Positions 3,970-51,001 of a stretch of 64,000 bases of DNA are shown here, in pieces. Each line of letters begins with the position of its first letter. The first letter of the stretch is position 1. Below the pieces are notes generated by a model, which made no database searches, had not been told where the DNA came from, and saw only the letters and a program-made list of their open reading frames with translations. A program made the position numbers and the translations under genes. The stretch is from Endomicrobium sp. (GTDB lineage Bacteria > Elusimicrobiota > Endomicrobiia > Endomicrobiales > Endomicrobiaceae), in NCBI GenBank assembly GCA_031262585.1, contig JAISHK010000009.1, positions 1 through 64,000 of the forward strand. The letters are read 5' to 3'.

Positions 3970-5622
3970 TTATTTCCCCATTTTTCTTATTTCTTTTCTC
4001 TTAATTTTACCACTTATCGTCTTAGGCAATTCATTTACAAACTCTATAACTCTTGGATACTTGTAAGGAGCAGTAATTTTTTTAACATGATTTTGAAGCT
4101 CTATAATAAGCTTTGAACTCGGTTTATATCCTTTAGCTAAAACAACTGTGGCTTTCACAATTGTTCCGCGAACACTATCTGGCATTCCAGTTATAGCACA
4201 CTCAAGTACACAGGGATGTTCCATTAAAGCACTTTCAACTTCAAACGGACCAATTCTATAACCAGAACTTTTTATAACATCATCAGAACGTCCAATAAAC
4301 CAAATATAACCATCTTCATCCTTATATGCCATATCTCCTGTATCATATATACCATCATTCCAAACACTTCTAGTCATAGAAATATTTTTGTAATATCCAC
4401 AAAATAAACCTAGAGGTTTACAATTTTTAGTCTTTACTACAAGGCGACCCTCTTTACCAGGTTCACAAGAATTGTTTTCCTTATCAATAATATCTAAATC
4501 CCAGCCCGCTGATGGTTTACCAATAGAACCAGGCCTCACTTTCATCCAAGGGAAAGTGGCGGCTATAACAATTGTCTCTGTTTGCCCAAAACCTTCTTTT
4601 ATATCAATACCAGTCATTTTCTTAAATTGATAGAAAACTTCAGGGTTTAAAGGTTCACCTGCTGTTTCAGCATATTTTAATTTGGACAAATTATATTTAG
4701 AAATATCTTCTTTTATAATATGTCTGTAAACTGTAGGTGGTGCACAAAATGAAGTAACACCATATTTTGCCACTCTTTCCATTAAATTATGATGATTAAA
4801 CCTTTCATAATCGTAAACAAAAACACATGCTCCACAAAGCCATTGACCGTATATTTTTCCCCAAGAAGCTTTAGCCCATCCTGTATCAGCTACAGTAAGA
4901 TGAAGACTATTATCGTCTAAATTTTGCCAAAACCTTGCAGTTATAATATGACCTAAAGGATATGAATAATCATGATATGCCATTTTGGGCAATCCTGTAG
5001 TTCCTGATGTAAAATATAGAATAAATTTATCTGAAATTTTAATAGCATTGTCTCCTGTAGATTTTTTAAAAACATCGGAAAACTTCTTAATTTCTTTAGA
5101 ATACTCAATCCATTCATTTACATGGCCATTTACGGAAACAATGTTTTTTAATTCTGGCAAATCTTTCTTTGCTTCATTTATAACTTTTACAATTCTGCTA
5201 TCTGCAATTGCAACAATAGTATTTATTTCGGCAGCCTTTACTCTATACTTAATATCTTTTACTGTTAAAAGGTGCGTCGCAGGAACTAACACTGCTCCTA
5301 TTTTGTGAAGCGCAACTGCAAAATGCCAGTATTCGTAACGCCTCTTTAACATAAGCATTACAGTATCACCTTTCTTTACACCTAAAGATTTTAAAAAATT
5401 TGCTATACGATTACTTTCTTTCTTAATGTCCAAAAAAGAAAATATTCTCTCTGCTCCTTCTGAATTACACCATATTATCGCCTTTTTATTTGGTTCAATA
5501 TTTGCAAGCTCATCAACAACATCAAAACCAAAATTAAAATTTTTTGGAACACAAATTTTACAATTTCTTATAAAATCATCATATGATTCATAGTTAATTT
5601 TCACATATTTTTCAGCTAGCAT
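3970..5622 (-). CDS. AMP-binding acyl-CoA synthetase (acetyl/medium-chain type)
   Basis: ANL-superfamily ligase of 550 aa that activates a carboxylic acid to an acyl-adenylate and then to the CoA thioester. The P-loop-like motif LYFTSGTTGLPKMA lies near residue 204, GFGQTET near 343, the YDTGD motif near 425, the hinge FIGRSDDVIKSSGYRIGP near 441, and the catalytic Lys in PKTISGKIKRKE near the C-terminus. Architecture fits the medium-chain acyl-CoA synthetase group; the acid cannot be read from sequence. It follows an XRE-cupin regulator by 51 bases, a pairing seen in many anaerobes, so the two are probably cotranscribed. A GAGAGGG site precedes the ATG. Confidence 0.88.
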   Translation of the reverse strand: MLAEKYVKINYESYDDFIRNCKICVPKNFNFGFDVVDELANIEPNKKAIIWCNSEGAERIFSFLDIKKESNRIANFLKSLGVKKGDTVMLMLKRRYEYWHFAVALHKIGAVLVPATHLLTVKDIKYRVKAAEINTIVAIADSRIVKVINEAKKDLPELKNIVSVNGHVNEWIEYSKEIKKFSDVFKKSTGDNAIKISDKFILYFTSGTTGLPKMAYHDYSYPLGHIITARFWQNLDDNSLHLTVADTGWAKASWGKIYGQWLCGACVFVYDYERFNHHNLMERVAKYGVTSFCAPPTVYRHIIKEDISKYNLSKLKYAETAGEPLNPEVFYQFKKMTGIDIKEGFGQTETIVIAATFPWMKVRPGSIGKPSAGWDLDIIDKENNSCEPGKEGRLVVKTKNCKPLGLFCGYYKNISMTRSVWNDGIYDTGDMAYKDEDGYIWFIGRSDDVIKSSGYRIGPFEVESALMEHPCVLECAITGMPDSVRGTIVKATVVLAKGYKPSSKLIIELQNHVKKITAPYKYPRVIEFVNELPKTISGKIKRKEIRKMGK

Positions 5623-25755: not shown

Positions 25756-26343
25756 TTAAGTTATACATAATTTGTAGAAATTATATATACATTTTTTTAA
25801 AGCTTTTTTTGATCCATTGTTATTTATTACAAAATCCGCAAGTTTTATTTTTTCTTTTACAGGCATCTGCGAATAAATTCTCTTTTGAACATCTTCATCA
25901 TTTAAACCATCACGCATGGCAAGACGTTTCCTTTGAGTCTCATAAGATGCCCATATAACTATAACTTTATCACAAATTTTATCCAATCCTATTTCAAAAA
26001 GAAGTGGTGCATTTATCATTATATTGGCATATTTACTTTTTTTTTGTGAAACTATTTCATTTATACGCATTATAATTTTACCATGAAGAATTTCTTCAAC
26101 AATTAATTTTGCATTTTTGTCAGAAAAAATAATATTGGCCAATTTTTTTCTATTTAATAACATATTAGAAAACAAGATATTTTGTCCAAAAACTTGTACT
26201 ATTTTATTAAAATAAGAAGTACCAAAAACTGTAAGCTCATGCGATATAGCATCTGCATCTATAGAATAAACTCCTAATTCTTTAAAATACTTAACACTTT
26301 CACTTTTTCCACTAGCAATACCTCCCGTCAAGCCTATTATCAT
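25756..26343 (-). CDS. coaE: Dephospho-CoA kinase
   Basis: Last step of coenzyme A synthesis: phosphorylates the 3'-OH of dephospho-CoA. With the ATG at 26343 the protein is 195 aa and opens with MIIGLTGGIASGKS (P-loop), the normal N-terminus. A TTG 42 bases upstream would add an atypical extension. Other family text: YSIDADAISHEL near 26, INAPLLFEIGLD near 108 and RLAMRDGLNDEDVQKRI near 138. GAGGG lies 13 bases before the ATG. The polA-coaE-rho order is common in bacteria. Confidence 0.9.
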   Translation of the reverse strand: MIIGLTGGIASGKSESVKYFKELGVYSIDADAISHELTVFGTSYFNKIVQVFGQNILFSNMLLNRKKLANIIFSDKNAKLIVEEILHGKIIMRINEIVSQKKSKYANIMINAPLLFEIGLDKICDKVIVIWASYETQRKRLAMRDGLNDEDVQKRIYSQMPVKEKIKLADFVINNNGSKKALKKCIYNFYKLCIT

Positions 26344-26529
26344 ATTTTCTTTATTTCCCTCAATTATTTCTAATTTTGATATCAACCAAACAATAAGACT
26401 TCTAATTTTACTGCCTTCCCATTTTATTTTTTATAATACTTATTATATTCCTAACTTACTTATCAAAAATTTCAAAAAGTAAATTATCATGAACTTACAA
26501 AATTATAAAAGCTCTATATTTTTTCGTTT
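26344..26529. other. Gap between coaE and the last readable polA remnant
   Basis: About 190 bases of AT-rich DNA with no frame I can assign. It is where PolA motif C would be expected if nothing were deleted, but it is too short for the full end of the polymerase domain, so a deletion is likely. Confidence 0.4.
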
Positions 26530-27620
26530 GAGCATTTGCTCTAAATATAACCCAAACATATATCTTATTTTGTCTATAATTACGTAAACATAACCATCCT
26601 TTATAGTATTTCTCTACAACATTTTTCACCCATAAATTTATTCACTATGTTTAACAAAATATCCGTTTTAGAACTTTTAAATCACCTTGAAAATAATCAA
26701 CACATATAAAAACTTTATTATCATTCGGTACAAATGATTTGCCAAATTCCTTTCTGTGACAAGATATTATAGAAATATTTTGTAAATTTAATTTCCTAAA
26801 TAATAATTTCCCCATAAATGTCACAGCTTGTTTAATAATTGCATAAACTCTATCAACATAATAAGCACACAACAATTTAATATTAATTATATATGTGTTT
26901 TTTTAATTTTTGTAATTCGCAATACTCTAAAACTTCAGAAAGTAGTTCATAAAAGATAATTCAACTAATATTGCTTCATCCACAAAATAATCAGTTTTAT
27001 TTTTTAATTATAGAAGTTAATTTTATTTAACATCATAGAAACAAGTTATTTTGAAGAATTAGCATTAAATTCCTTTTTATTAATATCAAAAATATTTTTT
27101 TATTAAAATTACGTAAAAAAGATGTGTTAACTTTTATTCCAGAAAATTCTACTTTAGACTAAACTTTAATTAAAGAGATTTTTATATCAAAAAAGCGACA
27201 TACTTTTTTCTTAACTAAATAGCAGGCTAAATATTTCAAATATGGCAAAAATTACTGACATAACTGAATTTGTATATTTAACAACATGTTTCACTGAAAA
27301 ACTGACAAAAAGTTTTCTCTTACTCTCCCTACAAAAAAAATTTTCATCATTAATAACAAAATTTAAATATTCTTTTGATATCTCACCAATATTATGTGAT
27401 TTTATAGAATACAAATAATTATAATACAGACACTACATTAAAATATATATAATTTAAATCTATTCCAGATATTTTATACAAATTTCTCTCTTGCTTTAAA
27501 TCATACTCAACTTTTTTATTTTATTTAAAGATAATACAAAAATACAAACTCTTTAAAATTCTCACAATTTCAACAACTATTAGAAACAACATTTTTATTT
27601 TCAACAAGTTTTTTCTTCAA
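26530..27620 (-). pseudogene. polA: Eroded 3'-5' exonuclease-like and polymerase domains of DNA polymerase I
   Basis: Reading the minus strand downstream of the polA stop, broken frames still resemble the rest of PolA in the right order. Directly after the TAG the same frame reads KLVENKNVVSNSC, stop, NCENFKEFVF, like the interdomain linker. At 27414-27211 the text HNIGEISKEYLNF...SFSVKHVVKYTNS matches the exonuclease-like domain (LEDLAKEYLxY...EKVxEYxxxDA). At 26875-26651 it reads AVTFMGKLL, LNLQNISI and KSFVPNDNKVFICVDYFQ, matching TATGRLS, PNLQNIP and motif A (AFVP...ADYSQ) with catalytic-region substitutions. Near 26620-26540, in two frames, VEKYYK and KDGYVYVII match the EKxYKDGYVxTL segment. 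Multiple stops and frameshifts rule out function. Confidence 0.82.
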
Positions 27621-28466
27621 CTACAAATATTTAACTAACAAACTCTTAAACTCATATTTTTCAAAAAATAAACGCAGTTTACTTTCATTAAAATTATTAT
27701 TTATAAAATTTTCAAGATGATACTCCATAGGAACTCGCTTATTTAATTCTATCAATTTTTTGCTTAGCAACACTTCTTCCCTACCATTTTGCAATAATTT
27801 TCCGATATTTCCTCTTATATAACCACTATTTTCTAAAACATTTTCGAGCGTTTCAAATTTTTTTATAAGTTTAACAGCAGTTTTTTCACCAATTCCTTTT
27901 ATTCCAGGAACATTATCTATAGAATCACCCATTAAAGCAAAAACATCTAAAAGCTGCTTTGGAAAAACCCCATATTTTTCCTTTACTTTTTGTGCATTAT
28001 ACATAACGTTCTTAGAGTCATTCCAAATTAAAACATTTGCTTCTTCCACTAATTGAAAAATATCCTTATCTCCAGTAACAATAATTGTTTGTAAATTATT
28101 TCTTTTATTCTGCTCTGTAAGTGTAGCAATTAAATCATCAGCTTCATATCCTTTAAACTCTATCTTTGCTATATTTAAAGCTTCAACAGCTTCTCTTACA
28201 ATAGGCATTTGACTTATAAGAGCTTCATCTAATGATTTTCTGTTTACCTTATAATCTTTAAATATTTCATGCCTAAAATTTTTTGACGGATAATCAAAAC
28301 AAACCACAATATAATCAGGTTTAAAATTATTTTTTATTTTAAACAACAACTTTACAAAACCGTATACTGCATGAATTTGCTGATTATCTGTAGTTACGAG
28401 TACTGGCAAAGCATGATAAGCTCTATGAATGTATGCATTACCATCTATAATAAAGAATTTTTTCAT
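27621..28466 (-). CDS. polA: DNA polymerase I reduced to its 5'-3' exonuclease (flap nuclease) domain
   Basis: 281 aa covering only the N-terminal 5'-nuclease domain of PolA. Metal-site acidic motifs are intact: FIIDGNAYIHRAYHAL at the N-terminus, YIVVCFDYPSKNFRHE near 53, KGYEADDLIATL near 105, VTGDKDIFQLV near 125 and LMGDSIDNVPGIKGIGEKTA near 178 (helix-3-turn-helix). The ORF ends with FEKYEFKSLLVKYL, the natural end of the domain, at a TAG beyond which homology continues in eroded form. The product could still remove Okazaki primers, as free-standing flap nucleases do, but has no polymerase. Its ATG overlaps the trxB stop by 4 bases. Confidence 0.88.
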   Translation of the reverse strand: MKKFFIIDGNAYIHRAYHALPVLVTTDNQQIHAVYGFVKLLFKIKNNFKPDYIVVCFDYPSKNFRHEIFKDYKVNRKSLDEALISQMPIVREAVEALNIAKIEFKGYEADDLIATLTEQNKRNNLQTIIVTGDKDIFQLVEEANVLIWNDSKNVMYNAQKVKEKYGVFPKQLLDVFALMGDSIDNVPGIKGIGEKTAVKLIKKFETLENVLENSGYIRGNIGKLLQNGREEVLLSKKLIELNKRVPMEYHLENFINNNFNESKLRLFFEKYEFKSLLVKYL

Positions 28467-29368
28467 AAATTTTCTAAATAATACTGAACGCTAACAGCAG
28501 CTTGAGCACCATCTGCTGCTGCTGTAACAACTTGTCTTAATTGTTTTTTCCTTATGTCGCCAGAGGCAAAAATGCCTAAAATAGAAGTTTTCATATTTTC
28601 ATCCGTCACAATATATCTATTCTCATCAATGGCAATATCTGCAAGAAATGAATTATTTGGAATAAATCCTATAAAAACAAATACACCATCAATTTTTAAA
28701 CTTTTGACCTCATTCGTCTTTACATTTGTTATTATTACTTTTTCAATAAAATCTTTGCCAACTATTTCTTTAGGTACTGAATTATATATTACAGATATAT
28801 TTGAACATGATAACATCTTATCTTGTAAAATTTTCACAGCTCTTAATTCATTTCTTCTATGGACAATAGTTACATTTTTTGCAAATTTAGCTAAATATAT
28901 AGCTTCTTGAACAGCCGAATCTCCACCACCTATAACCAACACATCTTTGCCTCGATAAAACGGAGCATCACATGTTGCACAAAAAGATATGCCTCTTCCT
29001 ATAAAGGCTTTTTCTCCTTGTATATTCATTTTCTTTAAATTTGTTCCACTGGCAATAATAACGGTCTTAGCTTCATAAGTTGAATTTTTTGTCATTATTT
29101 TTTTTACACTTTTATTTTTAATACTTGTAACTTCATCATAAATTATTTCAGCACCAAAACCTCTCGCTTGCGTTTCAAGCTTAACAGCAAGCTCAAAGCC
29201 ATTAACTCCTCCGTTAAATCCTGGATAATTTTCAAGTAAATTTGTTATAGTTATTTTTCCTCCACAACCATTTTTTTCTATAAGTAGCGTTTTTAATCTC
29301 GCTCTTGAAGCATAAATAGCTGCAGATAATCCTGCAGGACCGCCTCCAACAATAATAACATCATACAC
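28463..29368 (-). CDS. trxB: Thioredoxin reductase
   Basis: FAD- and NADPH-dependent reductase of thioredoxin. FAD motif YDVIIVGGGPAGLSAA at the N-terminus, redox-active CATC in GISFCATCDAPFYRG near residue 130, NAD(P) motif DVLVIGGGDSAVQEA near 147 with the HRR motif in IVHRRNELRA, and the terminal FAD motif GIFASGDIR near 275. The GTG at 29368 is preferred: AGAGGAG lies 8 bases before it, while an ATG at 29386 lies upstream of that site. trxA is just upstream. Confidence 0.94.
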   Translation of the reverse strand: MYDVIIVGGGPAGLSAAIYASRARLKTLLIEKNGCGGKITITNLLENYPGFNGGVNGFELAVKLETQARGFGAEIIYDEVTSIKNKSVKKIMTKNSTYEAKTVIIASGTNLKKMNIQGEKAFIGRGISFCATCDAPFYRGKDVLVIGGGDSAVQEAIYLAKFAKNVTIVHRRNELRAVKILQDKMLSCSNISVIYNSVPKEIVGKDFIEKVIITNVKTNEVKSLKIDGVFVFIGFIPNNSFLADIAIDENRYIVTDENMKTSILGIFASGDIRKKQLRQVVTAAADGAQAAVSVQYYLENL

Positions 29369-29427
29369 TATGACATCTCCTCTCAAAATATTTTCAATTC
29401 TTAAATCCTATCCAAAATAACAATTCT

Positions 29428-31404: not shown

Positions 31405-31413
31405 AACAATTTT

Positions 31414-31443
31414 ATTCTAACATTTTATATTAAAAAGTTTCAA
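31414..31443 (-). promoter_or_regulatory. Possible promoter of def-fmt
   Basis: Minus strand TTGAAA (31438-31443), an 18-base spacer and TAGAAT (31414-31419). The predicted start is only a few bases from the def ATG, which has no clear ribosome-binding site, so the mRNA may be leaderless. Confidence 0.35.
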
Positions 31444-33326
31444 TAAAACTATTTACTATGTGATTATTATTAAATTTTATTTAAAAACTTACAACTACAT
31501 TTTCATTATAAAAACTCATAAGATTAAGCTAATATGGATACTATACAATGCCAAGCTATAAAAGATAAAAAAATCCATTTTTATTTCTTCACGTGAAATT
31601 TTTCACAATCACCACACAAATTGTATCAAACATCATAATCCTCTGTTTTTAAAAATATATAGCAAATCATTATTTTTAATATTACACAAATTAGACACTT
31701 TTATAAATTCTCTAAAAAATTTCATATGTTGTTAAAATATTGTTTCACATTTAAAATCTTCTTGTTGGGAATAAATAGACATTCTCAACATAACTTGTTC
31801 GCACTTCAAACCAAATCATTACTTCTTTTCTTTCAACTTTTTATAATTAATAAAATCATATCCTTTAATAATTGCATCTTTTATTTTATCTTCAATTAAA
31901 GAATTTATAGATGCTATTTCATTAAATAAGATAAATCCTCTTTATAAGAGCTTCTTTACGATTATTACATAATGGATATGTAATTACTTGCAACTGCGAA
32001 TAGTAAATTTATTATAAAACCGTATAACAATTTGTTGTAAGCGCGATATGAAATCATCATATTATTGTAAATTTAAGCTGAACAAGGTGGATAATGGAGA
32101 ATTACAAACAATTACTAAAAACCCAAATTTCATCATACTCAGCACATAATTATCATGCCATTACTTAAAGTAAAATTTAGTAGATTTATCTTGCAGAAAG
32201 TTTTCCTGTATTATCACTCGAAAAACTCCAGTTTATACCAACATCCAATTTTTCATTTTTGCTCTTCTTATTACTATTAATTTAAATTTTGCACGGCATT
32301 TCTTTTTAAATACTCTATCGCAGTTAAATTAACAACTAAAAATAAATATTACCTTACTCATATTGATCATGATTACAACAAAAAAATTAATGGTTTTACA
32401 CGTTTCTATTTGTAAAATATAGTATTTAAATTAATGTATAAAAAAAAATCATATAAGGACTTAATTATACAAATCTTAGTTTTTTAAAATTTTCTTTCAT
32501 ACTCATCGTAATTGTTATATTTTTCAAATATTTCATTATTAAAATATTGTAACACTACACAAGAACACAAAAAAATAAACAATATCAATACATTAGAAAC
32601 TATTTAAATTTTATACATAAAATAAAAGTGGAATAAAAAGCAACTATTTCTGAACTATACTCACTAAATCACAAATAATTTTAACAGAACAAAAACTTAA
32701 ATTAATAAATAAAATGATACAATAAAATTTTTCAATCAAAAGTAACCTTTAAAGAAACACATCTCGTGTTATCTCTCTAGTTCTTCATTAAAATTTTTAA
32801 ATAATTATATCTCCATTGCCAATACAATTTGAACCAATTAGACTCATGATTTAACGATTGAAATATCTTTTCGAGTTTTAAAAAGACTTGCTTATATCTC
32901 GGTTTTCATCACATAAAAACACTTGTTATCTGAGAATGATTGATAACATATTATAAAAAGTTAACTCATTAGAATAATATAACTCCTATTTCAAGAAGTT
33001 ACATAATTAAAATTTGGGAATATTAAGTCTTTTATAGATTTGTTTCATATCAATAAAAATTGTAGATCCTTCAGTTTATTATACCTACCAAAAACAACAC
33101 AAAATCCTCTAAATATGCATTTATTTACCTTAAATTTTAACTGAGTTTATTTCCATCATTTTTTATTTTTAGATTGTATTTTTTATCTGAACTTACTAAT
33201 TTCGAAGATTTTTATGATTAATTTTAGAACTATATACAACTTAAATATTAATATAAGAAAAACACTAAAACTAAATCAAAATACATTTAGGCAAACTTTT
33301 TTACTCATCGCTCCCATAACACATAA
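31444..33326. other. Long eroded region upstream of def
   Basis: About 1.9 kb without an intact frame. On the minus strand near 31820-32010 two adjacent frames join to a coding-like text: QVITYPLCNNRKEALI in one, then FNEIASINSLIEDKI and IIKGYDFINYKKLKEKK in another, ending at a stop. This looks like the frameshifted C-terminus of a lost gene I could not name. Elsewhere I see only AT-rich DNA. Confidence 0.5.
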
Positions 33327-33399
33327 TGGGCAGTGCAGGATTTGAACCTGCGACCTCTTCCTTGTAAGGGAAATGCTCTTCCACCTGAGCTAACTGCCC
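33327..33399 (-). tRNA. tRNA-Val (anticodon UAC)
   Basis: 73 bases including the discriminator A. The acceptor stem GGGCAGT pairs with ACTGCCC, the D-arm is GCTCAGGTGGAAGAGC, the anticodon loop is CTTACAA (anticodon TAC), and the T-arm is GCAGG-TTCGAAT-CCTGC. CCA is not encoded. Isolated in eroded DNA but structurally intact. Confidence 0.95.
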
Positions 33400-34310
33400 G
33401 GAGAATCGATGTAAATAAGCTATCAAATTTATTTTATAATGTCAAAAAATCATAAAACAACTAAACAACAAAAAGGAAATATTTATTAAACTTCATACAA
33501 AAAATTGCCATTTCACAATTAACCCATATAATCCAATCAAAGACGTTAGTTATAACCAAACATTCTAAAATATTAATACTTTTGCTTAAACATAAGCACT
33601 AAAGGTACAACACTAGGTTTATTAATAACACTTATAACACTGACAATATTTATAATATTATTCGTTAATTAGATTATAAATATTTGAGATTTTGCAATCT
33701 TTTTTAAAAATATGCATAAGATCGGACGATTTATATAATTTATAATGTAAATTTCAATACAATTTTAAATTTTATTTTATTCTATATTCTCAAATAAATC
33801 CAAATCATTTCCTGAAGAATTTGAAAATTTTTATGATATTCTTGATTTTTTATCATTAAAAACATATCGCTTTTTAAATAATCCAAAAAAAACTATACTC
33901 AGGAATTTTAAAAGTACAAAACAAATTAGAACTCTTTTAGGATATTTACAATTACTTAACAATTGCCAAATTTGTGCTATAAAATAATATTTTTTTATTT
34001 GCCGTATTAAAAGACATAAATTTATTACTTACTTTAGTCATACATAAAACATATAAATTTCTTTTAAAATCAATCTTTATTTCCGTATTATTCTTAATTA
34101 TATTAACACCTATAATTTTATATTTTATCAACTAATAAATATTATAAATTATAAACTCACTTTCAGTCAAAGGTTCTACCGCATAAGAAAGTTTAACTGT
34201 AATTTTTTCATACTCGGAACAATAGTTTGTATTTTTACCTCATTCATAAGAATAAACTGTTATAAACTTATCATATTCACCTTATATTTTTGAATTAGGT
34301 AAAAACCCTC
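33400..34310. other. Region without an intact gene between tRNA-Val and the CNNM-type gene
   Basis: About 0.9 kb. On the plus strand near 33790-33990 a frame of about 65 codons (with FPEEFENFYDILDFLSLK) stays open but has no start. On the minus strand 34132-34310 a frame with two in-frame stops (TAA at 34282, TGA at 34240) reads GEYDKFITVYSYE, stop, then ITVKLSYAVEPLTESEF and ends at TAG 34132. Both look like gene remnants; neither is assigned. Confidence 0.45.
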
Positions 34311-48697: not shown

Positions 48698-51001
48698 AAA
48701 AAATTCCCCCATCTAAAGTAAATAACTTCTGCGGCGAAAACAAATATATACATCCTTTTATCTAGACTAAAACGTTTAATTTACTATAAATCTTTGGGTC
48801 ACGATTTTAATGGATTCTATCCGCATTTTTGCTCAAGAAGGCCGTGCAGACTTTAAAAAATTTATAACTCTTATTACTACTAAAAAGAAAACAAGGATCT
48901 ATATTAAATCTTTACACTTTCCTCGAAGAATTTTAAAAATGAAACTAAATCATCTTTATCAACACCAACTATTATATTCATTTTCTAATAACTATGTCAA
49001 CACAACAAACATCTTAATATATTCTTTGAGAGTTGAAACTACTAGTTAAATTTGCGAAATTATAAGAAAAACCTAAAATAAAAAAACAACAAATAAAACA
49101 TTCCCCATACAAATTACACTTATAAATATTTCGCTTGCTTTTTTATTTTCTTTTCTAACAAGAAACATTTCTACCAAATGCACCACTTTTAACCAAATAC
49201 TCAAGACGACTCGTTTATACTTTCGTAATCGTCTATTAAAAAGTATCTTCTACCAAAATCTCACTTTCTTCTAAAAGTCCATTGACAATAATTTAAGTCA
49301 TGTTAACATTGCCTAATATTTCAACATTTTCTTCCACCACATTTTACATGCAAATACGTTGAATCTATCTACTAATCAAAATATTTTTTTATGTTTTAAA
49401 CCATCTGAAAAATATACATGCCTTGTACTACTAATACTCTAGAATTTGTATCTATTACATCTTTTGATATTTTTGTAACCAAGTGACTAAATCCGCTTTT
49501 AATGTTTGATTTTTCTCTTCTCTACTTCCATAATCTTTAAACCACTGCTTGATATCCAATTTCACTTTCACAACTTACTCTTGCTTTTCTTAAATTAATA
49601 TATATTTCTTTAATATCTACCGCTATTCACCACATATCAACTCAGATTTAGCATTATCACTAGCAGCAAGCTTAATACTTACATTATTATCTGTTAAAGA
49701 CAAAATTACAGTAATTTCACTTGAATTTAACCAATCAATTAACATATTTTTTTCTCTAACTCTCATCCTTATATAACCACCACAAATTTTCTAACCAATT
49801 CTCATGCTAAATTATAAACATCTATTTTGGGAAACTTTTTTTATTATAAAAACTGCACCATCTTCATAATATTTTTGTGCAATATCATCTTGAATCCTCT
49901 TCATAAACATCCGATCTGTTTACGATTTTTTGCTCTGTTTTTCTAAAAAATCTCTCTATTATAATTTTTAATTTTGTCCATTCTGTTTCGCCTGATATAT
50001 GTATCAACACTCTAAAGATAATACCTCATTTACTTTCTATTTTACGAGCTCTTTCCTTATTAATGTCAACATCATAACAAAGATCCCACTCTAGCGATAA
50101 ATTCTTCATTACAAAAGACCTCATCATTATATAACCATCAAACTCTGTTCTCAAAATTTTAACTTTATTCATTCCAATATTTTTCTCAATAAGCATAATA
50201 ATTGAAATATTTCTTATTTCTATTACTTTTTCTGTCTTTATGCATAATCTCTTCACTACCTCTATATAGTAAAATACAATAATATCAAGAATTTAGTATT
50301 AGATTTATACACTAAAATTCTTTTACAATCTCTTTTAGCTTACAAATAACAACTATAAAACATTCTTTTTCAAATAGATCTTTTGTAAACTTTTAATTGC
50401 TGCTCAGATATGCAATTTCACTAATCTGACAATAATAGAAAATCTCTAAATCATCACTATTTTTTTAGAAATCTCATTATATGAAATACAATTTTTTTCA
50501 AAATTATCTTCATAAGAATACAACAATTTTATACTTATTTTAATTATTACACCATACTCACATATGAATTAAAGATATTATCTAAAAGATTAAACAAAAT
50601 GCTTTATACTCAAGATATCATCCTTTTTTTAGAAAAAACCGCTTCATCTTCAACATACTAATAAATCAGTATAAACATCTTCTATTATCAATAATAAACT
50701 TTTTAACTCACGAGAAATACTTGATAAAACTCATGTCTAATAAAAACATTATAATAATCATCTCATATTACAAAAATTTTATCAGAATCAAAAAACAAAG
50801 AATATAAACTATAGTTGACTTACAAAAATCAATTAGTATTTATATCCTTTGTTTTTTATTCTCTGATATACTAAAACTTAATATTCAAAACAAACTTTCT
50901 CTGATTGTTAAAAACTCTTTTATTTTAAGTTTAAATTTTAGGCTCATCAAAAAAACTAATGTTAAACCTATAAAAACTGCTTGCTTTATCATACAAAATT
51001 A
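48698..51001. other. Long eroded region upstream of ribD
   Basis: About 2.3 kb with no intact gene. Minus-strand fragments look formerly coding, for example NMLIDWLNSSEITVILSL with LTDNNVSIKLAASDNAKSEL near 49650-49750, and LEYLVKSGAFG near 49200, but stops and frame changes interrupt them. A 76-codon minus-strand frame at 50026-50256 and a 79-codon plus-strand frame at 48810-49049 are not convincing genes. No source gene could be named. Confidence 0.5.

What the first reader, a model, noticed from the sequence alone, without database searches (positions are those of the whole stretch)
26530..28466. polA split by decay: intact 5'-nuclease, eroded polymerase
The ORF stops with TAG exactly at the end of the 5'-nuclease domain, yet the same frame continues with PolA-linker-like text, and further downstream fragments of the exonuclease-like domain, PNLQNIP-like text, motif A and the EKxYKDGYV segment appear in correct order across broken frames. 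The cell seems to have lost Pol I synthesis while keeping the flap nuclease under purifying selection. That catches PolA being converted to a stand-alone nuclease and raises the question of what fills Okazaki and repair gaps.
Basis: partly seen in the sequence, partly recalled or inferred. Interest (0 to 1): 0.75.

Follow-up and report, generated by a model that had tools for sequence, protein, structure and literature searches.

The report
polA decaying into a solo nuclease
A termite-gut symbiont has kept the primer-removing half of its DNA polymerase I gene intact while the polymerase half rots away beside it, and related bacteria have done the same at least two or three more times, so this genus shows step by step how a two-part repair enzyme is trimmed to one part.

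Summary
In a 937-kb Endomicrobium-type (Elusimicrobiota) genome, polA is a 281-codon 5'-nuclease ORF ending in TAG (28466-27621, minus strand), followed by about 1.2 kb of polymerase remnant (about 27536-26344). The remnant has about 15 frameshifts, 4-6 stops, and deletions that remove motif B. No other family A, B, X or Y polymerase was found; one DnaE is present.

It is not a sequencing error. At the same trxB-polA-coaE site, 30 relatives in the genus have a polymerase domain. One has polA split by a single stop; among the ten nuclease-only genomes, three have decayed polymerase halves and seven have none. The tree needs four independent losses, and a single origin is rejected. A genome of another family in the order also has trxB-solo nuclease-coaE.

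The nuclease is under purifying selection (dN/dS 0.12-0.20 in three loss lineages, much like intact pairs) and keeps all conserved acidic residues. In the clearest case, codon-position constraint stops at the domain border.

Most likely the nuclease still removes primers, RNase H helps, and DnaE fills gaps (inferred). Solo 5'-nucleases replacing Pol I are already known. What is new is the repeated in-place conversion with intermediates.

The parts
27621..28466 (-). Intact stand-alone 5'-nuclease (N-terminal domain of PolA), 281 aa plus TAG
   Evidence: Open frame; Taq Pol I nuclease match E 2e-46; 77 of 78 columns invariant in intact relatives kept, including the acidic residues D8, D58, E108, D110, D111, D133, D135, D181, D184; dN/dS 0.12-0.14
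27621..27623 (-). TAG stop at the nuclease/polymerase border
   Evidence: Sequence. All 11 truncated or split nucleases of the genus stop within about 30 residues of the end of the nuclease domain, with TAA, TAG or TGA
26344..27536 (-). Decayed remnant of the 3'-5' exonuclease-like and polymerase domains
   Evidence: About 400 aligned residues, 45-49% identical to intact relatives, about 15 frameshifts, 4-6 stops; Pfam DNA_pol_A pieces; tblastn E down to 1e-27
26669..27004 (-). Best-preserved polymerase piece, ending with motif A (VDYFQGDLKVL); internal stops
   Evidence: PF00476 E 7e-13, 1 TAG and 1 TAA inside; alignment
26664..26676 (-). Junction of a deletion of about 74 residues that removes motif B / O-helix (RNAAKSINFGIVYG in relatives)
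   Evidence: Frameshift-aware alignment to two intact relatives
26372..26539 (-). C-terminal polymerase piece with degraded motif C (VHDNLLFE), four stops
   Evidence: PF00476 E 2e-5; alignment
28463..29386 (-). trxB, upstream gene; its stop overlaps the nuclease start (ATGA)
   Evidence: ORF, sequence; same neighbour in 9 of the 10 other truncated or split loci; the G010 contig ends before it
25756..26343 (-). coaE, downstream gene; ATG start inferred at 26343, against the end of the polymerase remnant
   Evidence: ORF; same downstream neighbour in all truncated loci

Best explanation
polA is being converted in place into a stand-alone 5'-nuclease (flap endonuclease). The polymerase half is a pseudogene with its core deleted; the nuclease half is intact, probably translated together with trxB, and under purifying selection. 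Shown here: sequence state, selection, recurrence in three to four lineages of the genus, absence of other repair polymerases from the assembly. Inferred: the nuclease removes Okazaki primers and flaps, RNase HI and HII trim RNA, the single DnaE polymerase fills the gap or displaces the next fragment, and NAD-dependent ligase seals. This would work like the DnaE plus FEN route shown for B. subtilis without Pol I.
For: Own genome: polymerase only as broken pieces, core motif B deleted. Relatives: nuclease found in 41 of 42 genus genomes; polymerase domain in 30, one split, ten without. A graded series at one synteny site: intact; split by one stop (G002); decayed (G000, G015, G010); deleted, with coaE 0-498 bp downstream (G028, G007, G029, G031, G017, G034, G021). 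Four independent losses on the tree; one clade rejected. Selection: nuclease dN/dS 0.12-0.20 in pairs that include G000, G015, G010, G028 or G007; intact pairs mostly 0.08-0.16. G015 against G026: nuclease differences by codon position 0.056/0.056/0.159, remnant 0.22/0.27/0.21 with 16 frameshifting indels. Conserved acidic residues kept. One DnaE, RNase HI and HII and LigA in the own genome; no families Y, B or X. Literature: solo FEN in nearly all Pol I-lacking bacteria (PMC12926913); DnaE plus FEN completes Okazaki repair in B. subtilis (PMC13082043).
Against: The genome is 84% complete and lacks rpoB in the assembly, so an unassembled second polymerase cannot be fully excluded. Expression and activity are untested. 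The DnaE gap-filling step is inferred from B. subtilis; whether this DnaE displaces strands is unknown (for that step alone I would say 0.7). The G000 remnant keeps a weak codon-position signal against two of three relatives, so the loss happened part-way along its branch. In the smallest genomes the nuclease itself evolves faster (dN/dS 0.36 for G017-G034).
Confidence: 0.9

Rival explanations
1. Sequencing or assembly errors in an AT-rich metagenome genome break an intact polA.
For: It is a draft assembly in 11 contigs, and AT-rich homopolymers are error-prone.
Against: 12-19 frameshifting indels in the remnant and none in the adjacent 843 bp of nuclease, plus multi-residue deletions of essential motifs. 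Ten genomes of the genus share the nuclease-only state, with several reduced to 0-11 bp before coaE.
Confidence: 0.02
2. The whole locus is dying: the nuclease is also a pseudogene that has not yet picked up a stop.
For: Endosymbionts lose repair genes stepwise; the most reduced relatives have faster-evolving nucleases.
Against: dN/dS 0.12-0.20 in three loss lineages, 77 of 78 invariant columns kept in G000, no indels in the window's nuclease where the remnant has 12-19 frameshifts. In G015 the remnant is flat across codon positions while the nuclease is not, so selection continued after the loss. The nuclease is retained in all ten genomes that lost the polymerase.
Confidence: 0.05
3. The polymerase half is still made as a separate protein (split PolA), at least in some lineages, rather than lost.
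For: G002 has an open 623-codon Klenow-like frame after a single TAA, with the polymerase motifs and dN/dS 0.19, like its nuclease.
Against: Not possible in the window: about 15 frameshifts and motif B deleted. In G002 the first ATG is 20 codons after the stop, and a recent stop or an assembly error would look the same.
Confidence: 0.03

Closest known systems
Standalone (solo) FEN-like 5'-3' exonucleases of bacteria lacking Pol I (Tenericutes, Verrucomicrobia; surveyed in PMC12926913)
   Same: Homologue of the Pol I 5'-nuclease domain as the only such protein found in a genome without a Pol I polymerase.
   Different: Here it sits in the ancestral polA locus with the polymerase remnant still attached. 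It scores better against full-length Pol I models than against the curated solo models, so it looks like a local truncation of polA.
polA loss in protist and insect endosymbionts (clostridial endosymbionts of termite-gut protists, PMC10579323; proteobacterial endosymbionts, PMC6403173)
   Same: Reduced intracellular genomes that lose Pol I, in the first case in the same kind of habitat.
   Different: Those reports describe absence of polA or an incomplete PolA; here intermediates and the separately selected nuclease half are visible, in several independent lineages of one genus.
B. subtilis without Pol I (DnaE plus FEN pathway, PMC13082043)
   Same: DNA synthesis and primer flap removal by separate proteins.
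   Different: B. subtilis has a separate FEN gene, PolC and RNase HIII; this genome has one DnaE, RNases HI and HII, and the nuclease carved out of polA.

Membership tests
Canonical DNA polymerase I (PolA1) | 5'-nuclease domain with conserved acidic metal-binding residues | tested here: met
Canonical DNA polymerase I (PolA1) | Intact polymerase domain with motifs A, B and C in one frame | tested here: not met
   Two broken Pfam pieces; motif B deleted, about 15 frameshifts
Canonical DNA polymerase I (PolA1) | 3'-5' exonuclease-like middle domain | tested here: not met
   Only frameshifted pieces remain, start of the domain deleted
Solo FEN-like 5'-3' exonuclease | Pol I-type 5'-nuclease as a separate ORF of about 280-300 aa | tested here: met
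   281 aa; 287-318 codons from stop to stop in nine relatives
Solo FEN-like 5'-3' exonuclease | Present where the genome lacks a Pol I polymerase | tested here: met
   No intact PF00476 in the assembly, which is 84% complete
Solo FEN-like 5'-3' exonuclease | Passes a curated solo-exonuclease model | tested here: not met
   NF011547 229 bits, cut-off 305; DNA polymerase I model NF004397 scores 321 bits: homologous, but not of the established solo lineages
Solo FEN-like 5'-3' exonuclease | Flap endonuclease / 5'-exonuclease activity | not testable with these tools
   Needs purified protein
Xni / ExoIX | Passes the Xni model | tested here: not met
   162.8 bits against cut-off 261

The most novel reading that the evidence does not exclude
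Splitting Pol I into a solo flap nuclease, with synthesis handed to DnaE, is a repeatable evolutionary route in this order: a stop at the domain border, decay, then deletion up to coaE. It also happens outside extreme genome reduction (G038, 1.8 Mb), and sometimes passes through a working two-protein stage (G002).
Probability: 0.4. Interest if true: 0.65.

Novelty: new member of a known kind. Interest (0 to 1): 0.52.

Why it matters
It is a natural experiment separating the two jobs of Pol I: in one genus the polymerase half has been lost again and again and the nuclease half has not. It supplies intermediates for how solo 5'-nucleases arise. It also qualifies the published statement that free-living and endosymbiotic Endomicrobia show no notable differences in DNA replication or repair genes (PMC11257099), and it makes testable which polymerase finishes Okazaki fragments when DnaE is the only one left.

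Tried and rejected
Sequencing error: rejected by the density and kind of lesions and by recurrence. Second family A polymerase elsewhere: none in the assembly. Replacement by family Y, B or X polymerases: none in any of 42 genomes of the genus, while control genomes rang. Single ancestral loss: rejected by the AU test. rpoB as a tree marker: missing from half of the assemblies including this one, so DnaE plus rho, trxB and fmt were used. RNase HII loss as a partner of polymerase loss: strong association (present in 1 of 10 against 28 of 30; Fisher p 2e-6), but confounded with genome size, completeness and kinship, and this genome keeps RNase HII, so it is reported as an observation only. Two further AU tests did not finish. 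A Pfam scan failed on wrong coordinates and was not needed.

Full report
What the window is. The 64-kb window lies in a 936,649-base, 11-contig genome estimated 84% complete. The nearest named records that encode the same nuclease are Candidatus Endomicrobiellum / Endomicrobium genomes from termite guts, so the organism is an Endomicrobium-type member of the Elusimicrobiota. The gene order is def-fmt-trxA-trxB-polA-coaE-rho-rpmE-prfA-prmC, named by my reading of the ORFs, and it is conserved in the truncated relatives examined.

The observation. The nuclease ORF is 281 codons on the minus strand, 28466 to 27621, ending in TAG. Its ATG overlaps the trxB stop (ATGA), which suggests translational coupling (sequence, inference). 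It aligns to Taq Pol I residues 14-284 and to full DNA polymerase I models over their first 280 positions. Downstream, the Pfam DNA_pol_A model finds two broken pieces, 27004-26669 and 26539-26372, and no other match in the genome. With intact relatives as queries, four pieces appear in order on the same strand in different frames. A frameshift-aware alignment to two intact relatives covers about 400 residues at 45-49% identity, from about 27536 to about 26344, with about 15 frameshifts and 4-6 stops. A deletion of about 74 residues removes motif B, and a second of 24-35 residues lies before motif C. Motif A, an NLQNIS version of NLQNIP, KDGYV and a degraded motif C are recognisable.

Not an artefact. 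The remnant holds 12-19 indels that break the frame, depending on the relative used for alignment, and the adjacent 843 bp of nuclease holds none. If lesions fell evenly over both parts, none in the nuclease would be expected with probability 0.002 or less (conditional form). Deletion of motif B cannot be a base-calling error.

Recurrence. In 42 genomes of the genus, the nuclease is found in 41; the exception is 34% complete. In 30 of them the nuclease continues into a polymerase or runs to a contig end within PolA. The rest fall in a series at the same trxB-coaE site. G002 has a single TAA after the nuclease followed by an open 623-codon Klenow-like frame. G000, G015 and G010 have decayed remnants, with coaE similarity starting 1239, 784 and 534 bp after the nuclease. 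G029, G007, G028, G021, G031, G034 and G017 have no recognisable polymerase, with coaE similarity 498 down to 0 bp away. All these nucleases end within about 30 residues of the same domain border, with different stop codons and tails.

Independent losses. A tree of DnaE, rho, trxB and fmt (2223 columns, 46 rows) places the ten nuclease-only genomes in four places: G000; G015 with G010; G028 with G007; and a long-branched group of five. Four changes are needed, five if the split G002 is counted. A single clade of all ten is rejected (log-likelihood 728 lower, p 5e-50). Joining G000 with G015 and G010 is rejected (345 lower), and joining the other two groups is rejected less strongly (80 lower, p 0.012). 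The tree is a quick one without a mixture model, and long branches are present, so I take three losses as robust and four as likely. Outside the genus, G038 (another family of the same order, 1.8 Mb, 99% complete) has no DNA_pol_A match and carries trxB, a solo nuclease and coaE in the same order.

Selection. Pairwise dN/dS of the nuclease is 0.12-0.14 for the window against two relatives and 0.12-0.20 for pairs including G015, G010, G028 or G007; most intact pairs lie at 0.08-0.16, with one very close pair higher. Distances for the window are near saturation (dS 1.1-1.3), so the best test is G015 against G026 (L050). There the nuclease differs at 0.056, 0.056 and 0.159 of first, second and third codon positions (p 6e-6), while the remnant differs at 0.22, 0.27 and 0.21 (p 0.3) with 16 frame-breaking indels. 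Because the remnant has lost its codon pattern, most of that branch post-dates the loss, yet the nuclease stayed constrained (inference from those numbers). The window's remnant keeps a weak codon pattern against two of three relatives, so its loss happened part-way along its branch. The window's nuclease keeps 77 of 78 columns that are invariant in intact relatives, and none of the nine conserved acids expected to bind metal is changed in any truncated genome (the metal role is from knowledge of FEN nucleases). In the most reduced genomes the nuclease evolves faster, as do their other genes.

What does the synthesis. Each genome of the genus with a match has a single DnaE. No family Y, B or X polymerase was found in any, while the controls rang. 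The own genome keeps RNase HI, RNase HII and NAD-dependent ligase. The best-supported mechanism is that the solo nuclease removes primers and flaps and DnaE does the filling, inferred from B. subtilis, where DnaE with FEN completes Okazaki fragments without Pol I (PMC13082043). RNase HII is missing from nine of ten nuclease-only genomes and two of thirty intact ones (p 2e-6). In those lineages the nuclease may be carrying more of the primer removal; genome size, completeness and kinship are confounders.

Comparison with what is known. A 2026 survey found solo 5'-3' exonucleases in nearly all bacteria lacking Pol I and cites earlier work that the polymerase is dispensable only if the nuclease is supplied (PMC12926913). 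polA loss is reported in protist and insect endosymbionts (PMC10579323; PMC6403173). The window is thus a new member of a known kind. The new points are the in-place route with its intermediates and its recurrence within one genus and at least once more in the order. A survey of Endomicrobia reported no notable difference in replication or repair genes between free-living and endosymbiotic lineages (PMC11257099); the present data qualify that. I found no report of polA truncation in this group among the papers held; most subscription-journal papers, including the first Endomicrobium genome paper, could not be read.

Limits. The assembly is incomplete; it lacks rpoB. No expression or activity data were available.

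Noticed in passing
L123 (G002:C27, the same contig as L066, Po218_bin49), nuclease end at 4281 in gene orientation: polA split by one in-frame TAA between the nuclease and an otherwise intact Klenow-like frame of 623 codons with dN/dS 0.19; either a very recent loss, a two-protein Pol I, or an assembly error.
   Followed up: partly
L178 (G038:C8:44822-45310 and flanks): A 1.8-Mb, 99% complete genome of another family in the order has trxB-solo nuclease-coaE and no DNA_pol_A match: Pol I polymerase loss without extreme genome reduction.
   Followed up: partly
Genus-wide: RNase HII is missing from 9 of 10 nuclease-only genomes but only 2 of 30 with PolA; RNase HI is kept in 6 of the 10.
   Followed up: partly
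G019:C51, about 69-138 kb: One contig in a genus genome carries family A polymerase pieces, a second 5'-nuclease-like ORF, RNase H, a weak ligase-like match and an RNA polymerase beta-like match; it may be a large phage.
   Followed up: no
window 31405-34310 and 48713-51001: Long stretches almost without ORFs (one tRNA-Val at 33327-33399), possibly further decayed genes, not identified here.
   Followed up: no
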